Origin: Tilletia caries
Taxonomy: Eukaryota > Basidiomycota > Exobasidiomycetes > Tilletiales > Tilletiaceae
Length of the DNA: 64,000 nt
Assembly: GCA_032718865.1 (NCBI GenBank)
Contig: JALUTQ010000039.1
Coordinates: 806,001 to 870,000 of the forward strand
Reading direction: 5' to 3'
Part shown: one piece after another, positions 11,000 to 15,856 of the stretch
How the letters are laid out: the number at the start of each line of letters is the position of its first letter
How positions within the stretch are numbered: position 1 is the stretch's first letter
Program-made: the position numbers and the translations under genes
The notes under the pieces: generated by a model
What the model saw: the letters and a program-made list of their open reading frames with translations, nothing else
Database searches by the model: none
Told to the model about the DNA's origin: nothing

Positions 11000-11284
11000 T
11001 GTACAAGATGCTAGCTGTAGTGTGACTAGTCTTGTAAGAGCAAAGTGCAGTGTGAGTGATGTGTGTATTCTGCGACAAGAGGAAAAGGAAAGAAGTACAA
11101 GGATGAGCTCGACAGCGGAAAGGATGAGAGCGAGAAAAAAAAGGTGACGTGGGAAAATAGTGGAGGTGGAGGAGAGTCACGTGCAAGAGTGTGAGAAGAA
11201 AGATAAGGGAAAGAGACTAGATATGGAAGCCATGTGAAGCTGTGAGCCATGTGAAGCTGTGGAGTGTGGACCCTGTCCAGCACA
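11000..11284 (-). repeat. LTR 1 (3'-most LTR of the array)
   Basis: 285 bp, with TG...CA ends. It differs from LTRs 2 and 3 mainly by a longer A-run near 11136-11143. Its outer edge abuts the TGTCC duplication at 10995-10999. Confidence 0.9.
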
Positions 11285-11902
11285 TCCCCACCGACGAAAA
11301 GACGACTGTCCCGAGTCGTGGTGTCAAAAACAGGGTAGCAAGCAGGGAGCAAGGGAGAAGAAGATGAGGAACGCGTGCGGAATTAGGGTAAGTAGGGTAT
11401 GTCGATATGCGAGTTGGAAGGGAATGGAAAATAGCACGGAAGGCGAAGGAGAGCCAAAGTCCCGGACTGCCGAAACAACGCCCGTCGAGAAGGTGAAACA
11501 GAGAGTATCACGACGCCAGAGTCGAAAGGCGGAAAGCGGCGATGTGAGGTGGGTCGGTGATGAATTCGGGCCGGAAGTGATGCAAAGCGGTGGTAAGAAG
11601 CTGAAGCCCAGAGGAGAGGAGCAAAGCGGTTGAGGTTTGCGGAGGGCGGAAGGTAGATGGAGAGGAAGCGGTCGCAAATCGAGGCGACGGAGAAGAAGAA
11701 TGCGGAGGGGGCGTAGTGAATCGAGACCTTGAGGAGTTACAATACGTGCTCAAGCGATGCGTGCCACAAAGCGCAGGAGTGGAGCCTGTAAGCCCATCGG
11801 AACCAGCAACCGCGCCTGCTTGAACTTCGTGTGTCCGGGAGGAAGCTCCATCGAGGCGAGTCACGACCGAATCGAAAAGAGCAACGCCGACACGGTGCAA
11901 AG

Positions 11903-13096
11903 CTAGACTGACAGAGTCAAGCGCTTGAGGTGGAGCCTTAGGCGAATGAACAGCGGGACTGCAGACGACGGGGGTTGATGAGACTTCGGGGTGCTGGGGG
12001 AGGGCATGACTCGCGGGCACCGAGTCGGCCACAGCGCACAGCGCGTCACAGCGCAGCATGACCCACGCCTCTCGGACACGTGAAAGGGCGAGATCCACGG
12101 AGCTGATGACGGTCGAATCGTGGCATTCGACTCCGTCGAGGACGCTGATGAAGAGACGGGATCACCGAAATTGGAAACGCCGTGCTCCACTGTCGAAAGA
12201 GAAGATGATGGAGGTGATAGTGGGAGGGATGCTAGCGGATCAGCGGGTGGCAGAGTTCTTGTTGACGCAGGAGTGACTGCAGAGTGCGATCGTGTCGCAG
12301 TCAGGGCGGCATAGGAGAAGGCTGCCTGATCGGAACTGGTGGAAGTGCACGGCGGCGGAGTGGCGGGGAAGTGCTCAGATGAAGAGCTTGAAGGTCGTGA
12401 AGGTGCAAGTACCGAAGTCGATACCGAGGTTCTGGCTGCTAATTGTATGAGGTCCGCTGCAGATCTCAAAGGTGCTGCCGCGTCGCTGACATCGTTGGAA
12501 GCCGGAGAAGGTCTGGGAGGTGATGCCATAGGAGTGGACAGAGCTGGCAGAGTTGCGGGAGGATGTGAAAAAGCAGGAGTCGAAGAGGTCGGCTCGAAAC
12601 GCGGTCCCGGAGAGTATATTGGCGCCGGCATCGGCATTGCACATCGGGGCGCGGTGATGCTTCGGAGGTGATGAACAAGCTCGCGTATGCCCTCCCAGTT
12701 TGTGCCGACCGGAACAGGCGACGGCAGGCGAATGATAGACACCCGAACGGTGCAGTCAATCTCGAAGGTGTGACTGTGACGCTGATATGCTCCGAATGTG
12801 AGAACGTCGTCATCGTGCAACTCAAGGTGATCGTCGCCGAGGAGATGGCCGTTGACGCAGACTTGATCCGAGTGGTGAAGAACGGACCGCAACTTGAATG
12901 ACGAGCCATCGAAGTCGATGTATGCCTGATCAATCGCCAATGCGAGCGAGGGGAAGATAGCGTTGTCGAGGCCGGGGACAGGAGTGCCGCGAACATGCCC
13001 GTCGAGCTCTAGGGTGGCCGGCTGCGCGAAGTGGAAGATCTTCTTGTCGAACTCGGGCTGTCTGCCGACGGCTGTAAGATGGAGGGCGACAGGCAT
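11903..13096 (-). CDS. FHA-domain protein carried by the LTR element, copy 1
   Basis: Single uninterrupted ORF of 397 codons. Residues about 10-135 resemble an FHA phosphothreonine-binding domain: VGRQPEF, then IDFDGSSFKLRS, HSDQVCVNGHLLGDD and LHDDDVLTFG, in the order expected for the family's GR...S..H...NG...DxxxxG pattern. A conserved SxxH arginine/serine pair is not obvious, so phospho-binding is uncertain. The remaining 260 residues are Ser/Pro/Thr/Ala-rich and probably disordered. The start codon lies about 170 bp inside the element from the primer-binding site, the position normally held by gag. An overlapping frame (11508-12098) stays open but is not conserved between units, so I do not call it. 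The protein may serve the element or be a captured host gene. Confidence 0.75.
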   Translation of the reverse strand: MPVALHLTAVGRQPEFDKKIFHFAQPATLELDGHVRGTPVPGLDNAIFPSLALAIDQAYIDFDGSSFKLRSVLHHSDQVCVNGHLLGDDHLELHDDDVLTFGAYQRHSHTFEIDCTVRVSIIRLPSPVPVGTNWEGIRELVHHLRSITAPRCAMPMPAPIYSPGPRFEPTSSTPAFSHPPATLPALSTPMASPPRPSPASNDVSDAAAPLRSAADLIQLAARTSVSTSVLAPSRPSSSSSEHFPATPPPCTSTSSDQAAFSYAALTATRSHSAVTPASTRTLPPADPLASLPLSPPSSSLSTVEHGVSNFGDPVSSSASSTESNATIRPSSAPWISPFHVSERRGSCCAVTRCALWPTRCPRVMPSPSTPKSHQPPSSAVPLFIRLRLHLKRLTLSV

Positions 13097-13282
13097 GATG
13101 ACGAGGTAGGAATAGAAAAGTTCGGTTGAGAAAAAGAAGCTGCAAGCGAGGGATGAGGAGAGTGAAGGTGGGAGGAAAAGTCGGGTGGGAAGTTCAGGGA
13201 AGGAAAAGGACAGTGTCGTGTGGCCGTGTGGGTGTCTTGCCTGCGTCGTTCGCTCAGCAAGAGAGATCCACTCTCATCACCA

Positions 13283-14188: not shown

Positions 14189-15382
14189 CTAGATTGACAG
14201 AGTCAAGCGCTTGAGGTGGAGCCTTAGGCGAATGAACAGCGGGACTGCAGACGACGGGGGTTGATGAGACTTCGGGGTGCTGGGGGAGGGCATGACTCGC
14301 GGGCACCGAGTCGGCCACAGCGCACAGCGCGTCACAGCGCAGCATGACCCACGCCTCTCGGACACGTGAAAGGGCGAGATCCACGGAGCTGATGACGGTC
14401 GAATCGTGGCATTCGACTCCGTCGAGGACGCTGATGAAGAGACGGGATCACCGAAATTGGAAACGCCGTGCTCCACTGTCGAAAGAGAAGATGATGGAGG
14501 TGATAGTGGGAGGGATGCTAGCGGATCAGCGGGTGGCAGAGTTCTTGTTGACGCAGGAGTGACTGCAGAGTGCGATCGTGTCGCAGTCAGGGCGGCATAG
14601 GAGAAGGCTGCCTGATCGGAACTGGTGGAAGTGCACGGCGGCGGAGTGGCGGGGAAGTGCTCAGATGAAGAGCTTGAAGGTCGTGAAGGTGCAAGTACCG
14701 AAGTCGATACCGAGGTTCTGGCTGCTAATTGTATGAGGTCCGCTGCAGATCTCAAAGGTGCTGCCGCGTCGCTGACATCGTTGGAAGCCGGAGAAGGTCT
14801 GGGAGGTGATGCCATAGGAGTGGACAGAGCTGGCAGAGTTGCGGGAGGATGTGAAAAAGCAGGAGTCGAAGAGGTCGGCTCGAAACGCGGTCCCGGAGAG
14901 TATATTGGCGCCGGCATCGGCATTGCACATCGGGGCGCGGTGATGCTTCGGAGGTGATGAACAAGCTCGCGTATGCCCTCCCAGTTTGTGCCGACCGGAA
15001 CAGGCGACGGCAGGCGAATGATAGACACCCGAACGGTGCAGTCAATCTCGAAGGTGTGACTGTGACGCTGATATGCTCCGAATGTGAGAACGTCGTCATC
15101 GTGCAACTCAAGGTGATCGTCGCCGAGGAGATGGCCGTTGACGCAGACTTGATCCGAGTGGTGAAGAACGGACCGCAACTTGAATGACGAGCCATCGAAG
15201 TCGATGTATGCCTGATCAATCGCCAATGCGAGCGAGGGGAAGATAGCGTTGTCGAGGCCGGGGACAGGAGTGCCGCGAACATGCCCGTCGAGCTCTAGGG
15301 TGGCCGGCTGCGCGAAGTGGAAGATCTTCTTGTCGAACTCGGGCTGTCTGCCGACGGCTGTAAGATGGAGGGCGACAGGCAT
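14189..15382 (-). CDS. FHA-domain protein carried by the LTR element, copy 2
   Basis: 397 codons, identical to copy 1 except for the last residue (Ile instead of Val). Domain layout is the same: FHA-like region at the N-terminus, then a Ser/Pro-rich tail. The units differ by small indels outside the ORF, for example a longer G-run near 13989-13996, whereas the reading frame itself is kept intact. Both copies sit 2286 bp apart in the same orientation. Confidence 0.75.
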   Translation of the reverse strand: MPVALHLTAVGRQPEFDKKIFHFAQPATLELDGHVRGTPVPGLDNAIFPSLALAIDQAYIDFDGSSFKLRSVLHHSDQVCVNGHLLGDDHLELHDDDVLTFGAYQRHSHTFEIDCTVRVSIIRLPSPVPVGTNWEGIRELVHHLRSITAPRCAMPMPAPIYSPGPRFEPTSSTPAFSHPPATLPALSTPMASPPRPSPASNDVSDAAAPLRSAADLIQLAARTSVSTSVLAPSRPSSSSSEHFPATPPPCTSTSSDQAAFSYAALTATRSHSAVTPASTRTLPPADPLASLPLSPPSSSLSTVEHGVSNFGDPVSSSASSTESNATIRPSSAPWISPFHVSERRGSCCAVTRCALWPTRCPRVMPSPSTPKSHQPPSSAVPLFIRLRLHLKRLTLSI

Positions 15383-15573
15383 GATGACGAGGTAGGAATA
15401 GAAAAAGTTCGGTTGAGAAAAAAAGAAGCTGCAAGCGAGGGATGAGGAGAGTGAAGGTGGGAGGAAAAAGTCGGGTGGGAAGTTCAGGGAAGGAAAAAGG
15501 ACAGTGTCGTGTGGCCGTGTGGGTGTCTTGCCTGCGTCGTTCGCTCAGCAAGAGAGATCCACTCTCATCACCA

Positions 15574-15856
15574 TGTACAAGATGCTAGCTGTAGTGTGAC
15601 TAGTCTTGTAAGAGCAAAGTGCAGTGTGAGTGATGTGTGTATTCTGCGACAAGAGGAAAAGGAAAGAAGTACAAGGATGAGCTCGACAGCGGAAAGGATG
15701 AGAGCGAGGAAAAAGGTGACGTGGGAAAATAGTGGAGGTGGAGGAGAGTCACGTGCAAGAGTGTGAGAAGAAAGATAAGGGAAAGAGACTAGATATGGAA
15801 GCCATGTGAAGCTGTGAGCCATGTGAAGCTGTGGAGTGTGGACCCTGTCCAGCACA
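15574..15856 (-). repeat. LTR 3 (5'-most LTR of the array)
   Basis: 283 bp, with TG...CA ends. Its right edge abuts the TGTCC duplication at 15857-15861, after which RNase coding sequence resumes. The tRNA-type primer-binding site lies immediately left, at 15554-15573. Confidence 0.9.

What the first reader, a model, noticed from the sequence alone, without database searches (positions are those of the whole stretch)
11000..15856. LTR element that carries an FHA-domain gene in place of gag-pol
Seen: 283-285 bp LTRs with TG...CA ends, a 5-bp target duplication TGTCC, a TGG-starting primer-binding site directly after the LTR, a purine tract before the next LTR, and one 397-codon FHA-like ORF per unit. 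Known: small non-autonomous LTR elements (TRIM/LARD types) normally lack genes or keep a gag fragment. Inference: a distinct element class that has captured or evolved an FHA protein, which might bind phosphorylated host or Gag proteins to help mobilisation or targeting.
Basis: partly seen in the sequence, partly recalled or inferred. Interest (0 to 1): 0.88.

Follow-up and report, generated by a model that had tools for sequence, protein, structure and literature searches.

The report
Satellite LTR retrotransposon encoding FHA protein
In a bunt fungus of wheat, small jumping elements that seem to borrow the copying machinery of larger retrotransposons each carry one preserved gene for a degenerate FHA-fold protein, which suggests that these parasites of parasites make a protein of their own.

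The parts
10995..10999 (.). target-site duplication TGTCC, copy 1
   Evidence: sequence
11000..11284 (-). 3' LTR of the array (285 bp)
11285..11292 (-). purine tract GGTGGGGA before the 3' LTR
   Evidence: sequence; genome-wide word count
11903..13096 (-). 397-aa ORF, unit 2; FHA-fold part 12722-13096
   Evidence: fold modelled on unit 1
13268..13282 (-). primer-binding site TGGTGATGAGAGTGG, unit 2
13283..13565 (-). shared middle LTR (283 bp)
13566..13573 (-). purine tract GGTGGGGA before the middle LTR
   Evidence: sequence
14189..15382 (-). 397-aa ORF, unit 1; FHA-fold part 15008-15382; TNWEGIREL motif from residue 132 (helix 134-147 in the model)
15559..15573 (-). primer-binding site TGGTGATGAGAGTGG, unit 1
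15574..15856 (-). 5' LTR of the array (283 bp)
15857..15861 (.). target-site duplication TGTCC, copy 2
   Evidence: sequence
15862..16028 (-). start of the interrupted RNase (PF00545) gene upstream of the element, with a signal-peptide-like beginning (by eye)
   Evidence: flank translated alone
10667..10994 (-). remainder of the interrupted RNase gene downstream of the element (two frames, probably an intron between)
   Evidence: flank translated alone; P0003, which ends in the same residues, matches PF00545 at 2.7e-13

Best explanation
[quoted passage not shown] No reverse transcriptase or integrase was found in the unit. It is transcribed from its LTR, primed by a host tRNA at the TGGTGATGAGAGTGG site, and copied and integrated in trans by Ty3/gypsy elements that share the primer site and, in the best partner, the purine tract and LTR start (shown: shared signals, recent copies, target duplications; inferred: transcription, priming and the trans step). 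Its one gene is kept under selection across divergent subfamilies. It encodes an N-terminal FHA-fold domain, nearest to SLMAP/Far9, whose phosphothreonine pocket has been lost, then a short conserved helix, a Ser/Pro/Thr-rich tail and often a second helical-looking motif. The most likely role (inferred) is an element-made adaptor: a phospho-independent protein-binding scaffold that brings the element's RNA or cDNA to the helper's particles, or to a nuclear site. Tandem arrays arise by recombination between LTRs or by integration of LTR-joined multimers (inferred).
For: Array anatomy and duplication. Four copies of one subfamily, 99.1-99.6% identical over the whole element, at four sites with four different duplications. 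9 of 11 delimited elements or arrays have a perfect 5-bp duplication. LTR pairs 98.8-100% in 13 loci. 12 of 15 FHA-family ORF units on contigs with listed primer sites have one within 900 bp upstream; 26 of 34 have a listed purine-tract/LTR start within 2.3 kb downstream. Helper: 21 of 80 typed reverse-transcriptase matches on the listed contigs have the primer-site word 3.3-4.2 kb upstream on the same strand, none on the opposite strand at that distance. Element C5: primer site 2145820, RT 2149390 in a 1526-aa open frame, integrase core 2150758 in an equally long open frame, exact purine-tract/LTR start 2152189. Fold; divergent subgroup. Selection: dN/dS about 0.25 in the N-terminal part (dS 0.68, dN 0.17, L029 against L030); pN/pS 0.34-0.52 in 8 of the 9 other pairs and 0.72 in one (L042/L047). 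Sequence matching the tRNA through its T-arm next to the LTR in L031 and L038.
Against: No transposition, transcript or protein was seen. Of six gypsy LTRs read, only one (L051) resembles FHA-element LTRs beyond the end and primer site, and PF03732 gag was not detected in that C5 element. Only 8 of 85 purine-tract/LTR-start sites have a listed integrase core just upstream (capped list). Several copies are frameshifted, and the 397-aa window ORF lacks the ALxRxRxAW motif, so many copies may be dead or misassembled. L040 and L047 have no duplication. No host donor gene was identified. The Pfam FHA score stays below the cut-off. L042/L047 shows weaker constraint.
Confidence: 0.72

Rival explanations
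1. The FHA gene is passive cargo: a host gene fragment captured once, carried along and of no use to the element (Bs1-like transduction).
For: The part beyond the N-terminus diverges fast (pN/pS 0.55-0.81) and several copies are frameshifted.
Against: The N-terminal part keeps pN/pS at 0.34-0.52 in 9 of 10 pairs, most of them between subfamilies whose synonymous sites are close to saturated (pairs not independent). T. indica relatives keep the architecture. 34 units or fragments in many subfamilies carry it.
Confidence: 0.15
2. The FHA protein is a canonical phosphothreonine reader that binds phosphorylated Gag or host proteins.
For: FHA fold with known phosphopeptide binders among the nearest structures. 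A distant T. indica relative (P0013) seems to keep His and Gly-Thr at these places (by eye).
Against: In the A3 alignment no row has Arg, Ser, His or Thr at the pocket positions (0 of 13, 14, 14, 14); Asn is kept in 6 of 14. The roles of these positions are recalled from the Rad53 and SLMAP literature.
Confidence: 0.08
3. The unit is a fungal gene family (for the fungus's own use) that spreads by LTR-type duplication, with selection acting on the fungus and not on the element.
For: Gene predictors call it a fungal gene, and the N-terminal part is conserved.
Against: LTR, primer site, purine tract and 5-bp duplications accompany the ORF; LTR pairs of 98.8-100% show recent insertion, one inside an RNase gene.
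Confidence: 0.1
4. The FHA protein is a remnant or rearranged piece of a gypsy polyprotein.
For: Shared primer site, purine tract and LTR start.
Against: FHA-family matches have open frames of 114-673 aa. Of 34 units only one has a typed RT on the same strand within 7 kb, 3.8 kb upstream of the C1 unit (149 of at least 378 RT candidates). The fold is FHA-like.
Confidence: 0.05

Closest known systems
Bs1 of maize and other LTR elements with captured host genes (PMC13317346, passages read)
   Same: LTR element carrying host-derived coding sequence.
   Different: Bs1 carries segments of three host genes in one element. Here one ORF is shared by many subfamilies, stands where gag-pol would be and is under purifying selection within the elements; a host donor is not yet identified.
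TRIM and LARD non-autonomous LTR elements (definitions recalled)
   Same: LTR, primer site, purine tract, no reverse transcriptase or integrase, thought to be mobilised in trans.
   Different: Usually described without a conserved gene. Here an ORF of about 350-600 aa in most copies.
Cassandra tandem arrays (PMC7215508, abstract and outline read)
   Same: Arrays of units that share LTRs, non-autonomous.
   Different: No 5S RNA match in the window. Cassandra lacks coding capacity.
SLMAP / Far9 FHA domains (PDB 6ar2, 6ar0, 6a8w)
   Same: Best sequence and fold matches.
   Different: Phosphothreonine-pocket residues lost; different tail; encoded by a retroelement. Other FHA domains follow within about 2 Z units.
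Ty3/gypsy elements of the same genome
   Same: Primer site in many; purine tract and LTR start in some.
   Different: They carry RT and integrase, some with a detectable gag; no FHA ORF found in them.

Membership tests
LTR retrotransposon | paired LTRs with TG...CA, primer site, purine tract, short target duplication | tested here: met
Autonomous Ty3/gypsy | reverse transcriptase and integrase within the element | tested here: not met
   no such Pfam match in the two longest ORFs of the unit, 397 and 259 aa
TRIM | very short element without coding capacity (definition recalled) | tested here: not met
   about 2.57 kb per two-LTR unit with a conserved ORF
LARD | long (over 4 kb) element without coding capacity (definition recalled) | tested here: not met
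   complete single elements of 2.4-2.6 kb with an ORF
FHA domain | FHA beta-sandwich fold | tested here: met
FHA domain | Pfam PF00498 gathering score | tested here: not met
   12.8 against 20.7 bits; best relative P0008 19.2
FHA domain | phosphothreonine pocket residues (Arg, Ser, Thr/Asn; recalled) | tested here: not met
   0 of 13-14 rows for Arg, Ser, Thr, His; Asn 6 of 14
SLMAP/Far9 (STRIPAK) FHA subfamily | closest relationship to SLMAP/Far9 rather than to other FHA domains | tested here: inconclusive
   first in three comparisons, but weak by sequence (E 0.17, 0.31) and Z within about 2 of other FHA rows
Captured host gene (Bs1-like) | identified host donor gene | not tested
   no search for the Tilletia SLMAP/Far9 gene was made; genome letters were exhausted
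Cassandra-type array | LTRs shared in tandem | tested here: met
   window array; 9 runs of 2-4 LTR starts 1.9-3.6 kb apart
Cassandra-type array | 5S rRNA sequence in the LTR | tested here: not met
   no Rfam match in the window at gathering score

The most novel reading that the evidence does not exclude
A true satellite retrotransposon: a non-autonomous LTR lineage older than the T. indica / T. caries split that lives off Ty3/gypsy helpers and encodes its own selected protein, a pocket-less FHA scaffold taken from a STRIPAK (SLMAP/Far9) gene, which redirects helper particles or integration to the satellite's advantage, as phage satellites do to their helpers.
Probability: 0.3. Interest if true: 0.88.

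Novelty: new variant of a known kind. Interest (0 to 1): 0.74.

Why it matters
Non-autonomous LTR elements are normally seen as gene-less riders (recalled). A lineage of them that keeps one selected protein, unlike Gag or Pol, over many subfamilies and in two groups of Tilletia species would make it testable whether retrotransposon satellites encode functions that manipulate their helpers. It also gives a case of an FHA fold kept without its phosphothreonine pocket. FHA was a search term in two paper searches (PMC open-licence full texts); among the rows listed (20 of 162, and 8 of 8) I saw no FHA-encoding LTR element by title or abstract. The passages found in two Tilletia genome papers speak of gypsy and copia elements, and 'FHA' occurs in neither main text. 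Searches used other terms and also listed none.

Tried and rejected
The Ty1/copia element in the window (27770-33890) was checked as partner and rejected: different LTR ends, no matching primer site, RVT_2. A consistent C-terminal membrane anchor (as in SLMAP, recalled) was tested by hydrophobicity and dropped: 4 of 24 proteins exceed 2.1 over 19 residues. phmmer against PDB with the single protein gave nothing up to E 1; no plasmid match. ARAGORN found no tRNA in the window or the 20 loci given to it. The C22 array (L043) has the same primer site and LTR start, but at most noise-level Pfam matches in the four ORFs scanned, and its layout was not resolved. The protein tree (15 rows, 13 different) does not resolve the order of the subfamilies: 5 of 10 inner branches are open, and the T. 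indica row P0013 is a long branch; P0007 and P0009 were left out. The second fold model (L045 group) was made with FHA-group rows in its alignment, so its FHA match is not independent, and its pLDDT is 71. VIA-align can only rank what Foldseek found.

Rows dropped and limits: for the count of duplications I used 11 of 21 stretches (window and L028-L047); L028, L030, L031, L033, L034, L037, L042, L043, L044 and L046 were left out because two complete outer LTRs could not be delimited. L038 and L039 were read by eye. The LTR-pair identities are from the 13 loci with an LTR-length pair (L029, L031-L036, L038-L041, L045, L047); L028 has only an 82.7% pair of about 95 bp. In one search I used the 85 rows with 0-1 mismatches and dropped its 2-mismatch rows, and 97 of the 100 listed primer-site rows (three on C25 dropped). 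One search used the 100 listed of 270 primer sites and 149 of the 150 listed RT matches (378 first-look candidates), so its counts are lower bounds.
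Full report
What is there. The array runs 11000-15856 and reads on the minus strand: LTR 15574-15856, primer site, ORF 14189-15382, purine tract, LTR 13283-13565, primer site, ORF 11903-13096, purine tract, LTR 11000-11284. LTRs are 283, 283 and 285 bp and 98.9-100% identical; the internal parts are 99.5% identical. TGTCC flanks the array as a whole, so the doubled element either went in as one unit or grew after one insertion. The array interrupts, in the same orientation, a gene for a PF00545-type RNase: the upstream flank codes a start that looks like a signal peptide, the downstream flank the rest (flanks read apart). 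Gene models of T. laevis (P0003) and T. caries (P0004) run from the FHA ORF into residues identical to the downstream flank, which points to the same insertion there.

How common it is. Protein searches with three representatives, plus the L041 and L047 ORFs, give 34 ORF units or fragments; 26 of 34 have a listed purine-tract/LTR start within 2.3 kb downstream, and 12 of 15 on contigs with listed primer sites have one within 900 bp upstream. The three upstream misses are the C13 unit and the two L041 units, whose LTRs end in TATA, not in the TACA-type end of the word searched. Eleven elements or arrays have both outer ends delimited: window, L029, L032, L035, L036, L038, L039, L040, L041, L045, L047. 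Nine have a perfect 5-bp duplication (window, L029, L032, L035, L036, L041, L045; L038 TTCTG and L039 ATTGA read from the flanks); L040 and L047 have none; ten further loci were left out as incomplete. L029, L032, L035 and L036 are one subfamily, 99.1-99.6% identical in full length, with four different duplications. LTR pairs are 98.8-100% identical in 13 loci, so insertions are recent. Nine runs of LTR starts 1.9-3.6 kb apart on one strand, 2-4 starts each, the window among them, show that arrays are common.

The helper. The word for LTR end plus primer site occurs 270 times, the reversed control 3 times. One search set 100 of these sites against 149 RVT_1 matches, 80 of them on the same contigs: 41 pairs lie within 9 kb; 21, with 21 different RT matches, have the RT 3.3-4.2 kb downstream on the same strand; the other 20 are scattered (15 same strand, 5 opposite), none on the opposite strand at that distance. 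The purine-tract/LTR-start word occurs 185 times against 6. Of 85 sites with at most one mismatch, 8 have an integrase core 1.2-1.5 kb upstream on the same strand; three more cores lie within 4 kb on the other side, all on the same strand as the site. One element on C5 shows the whole order: primer site 2145820, RT 2149390, integrase 2150758, exact 17-base purine-tract/LTR start 2152189, with RT and integrase each reported in a 1526-aa open frame. Its LTR (L051) resembles those of FHA elements at the U3 start (79% over 67 columns to L047, 77% over 60 to L045) and at the end with the primer site (100% over 22 bases to L045). PF03732 gag was not detected in it; gag lies between primer site and RT in two other elements with the same primer-site word (C5:2264103 and C13:44599). 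The five other gypsy LTRs read share little beyond end and primer site. Of the 34 FHA units only the C1 one has a typed RT on its strand within 7 kb, 3.8 kb upstream, on the far side of its primer site, so no FHA unit is seen inside a gypsy pol frame.

The primer. The 20-base tRNA 3' word occurs 24 times, 0 in the control. Three sites end in tRNA genes called by Rfam (C3:349727-349824, C35:1082396-1082490, C35:361631-361709). Of the 12 sites printed with letters, 8 coincide with listed primer sites and two more with primer sites of L031 and L044. In L031 and L038 the match to the tRNA runs on through the T-arm (TGGTGATGAGAGTGGGATTCGAACCCAC). The complement of CCA, which eukaryotic tRNA genes do not encode (established knowledge), is included. 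This is what copying of a mature tRNA primer beyond the usual stop would leave. The resemblance to tRNA-Leu is recalled and untested.

Selection. In the N-terminal 142 codons (200 for L038 and L042) dS is 0.68 and dN 0.17 for L029 against L030; pN/pS is 0.34-0.52 in 9 of 10 pairs and 0.72 in L042/L047; beyond it the ratio is 0.55-0.81 (Nei-Gojobori; several dS values saturated, L031/L033 rests on 6 changes, and pairs share sequences, so ratios are rough). Some copies are broken by length changes in runs of one base, or otherwise; assembly error cannot be told from real decay here.

Distribution. Three searches of the 5.8-billion-protein set found relatives only in Tilletia (laevis, caries, controversa, indica); each scored about 7,990 candidates, and the method reaches only relatives that share short exact words. 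The T. indica protein P0005 is 56% identical to L029 over 26% of it and 48% to the window's N-terminal part, while window and L029 are 51% identical there: it is about as close to the subfamilies of this genome as they are to one another. In the tree it joins the same unresolved fork. This fits a lineage older than that species split, but does not prove it.

Mechanism. Shown: anatomy, recent insertions, cis signals shared with gypsy elements, predicted FHA fold, lost pocket, purifying selection. Inferred: RNA packaging and integration by the gypsy helper; the FHA protein as a phospho-independent adaptor for helper protein, host STRIPAK partners or RNA; arrays by LTR recombination or multimer integration. 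Arrays of LTR-sharing units are known in plants from Cassandra (PMC7215508, abstract and outline read). Captured genes in LTR elements are known from Bs1 (PMC13317346, passages read). An FHA gene as the sole, selected gene of a non-autonomous LTR family did not appear in the listed rows of the searches that used FHA as a term.

Verdict. The phospho-binding idea is unlikely. This is a real, multi-subfamily, gene-bearing non-autonomous LTR lineage with an identifiable class of helpers: a new variant of a known kind, with an open and testable question about what its protein does.

Noticed in passing
G000 C35:361631-361709 (minus), 1.4 kb upstream of an RT at C35:363084: Rfam calls a 79-bp full tRNA whose 3' end is the primer tRNA, while two other loci with that end (C3:349727, C35:1082396) are 98 and 95 bp; it may be a reverse-copied, spliced mature tRNA left at a gypsy primer site. 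Letters were not read.
   Followed up: partly
L031 3734-3761 and L038 4656-4683 (element sense): Primer sites extended through the T-arm of the tRNA, as if reverse transcription had passed the usual stop.
   Followed up: partly
L044 4693-5888 (C3:1898192-1899387): A 1.2-kb palindrome (97.8%) in which two LTRs of the window's subfamily (about 96%) face each other across primer-site/tRNA sequence.
   Followed up: no
G000 C33:760042-765755, C33:785495-787398, C28:751428-758694, C3:558205-565161: Further runs with the same purine-tract/LTR start (periods about 1904, 1903, 3633, 2319) whose internal content was not read and where the FHA searches listed no hit.
   Followed up: no
L043 (C22:645000-654900): Three-unit array of 3068 bp period in which the stretch from primer site to the next LTR start is only about 0.3 kb, so most of the unit may be a very long LTR; four ORFs scanned have at most noise-level Pfam matches.
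   Followed up: partly
window 27770-33890: Ty1/copia element with identical 283-bp LTRs, a pol ORF and a gag-like ORF without a Pfam match; unrelated LTR and primer site.
   Followed up: yes
window 8884-9230 and 38987-39326: A repeat of about 340 bp in two direct copies, 86-93% identical, 30.1 kb apart.
   Followed up: no
window 48220-48332 and 53360-53472: Inverted repeat of 113 bp, 81% complementary, 5 kb apart; possible DNA transposon ends.
   Followed up: no
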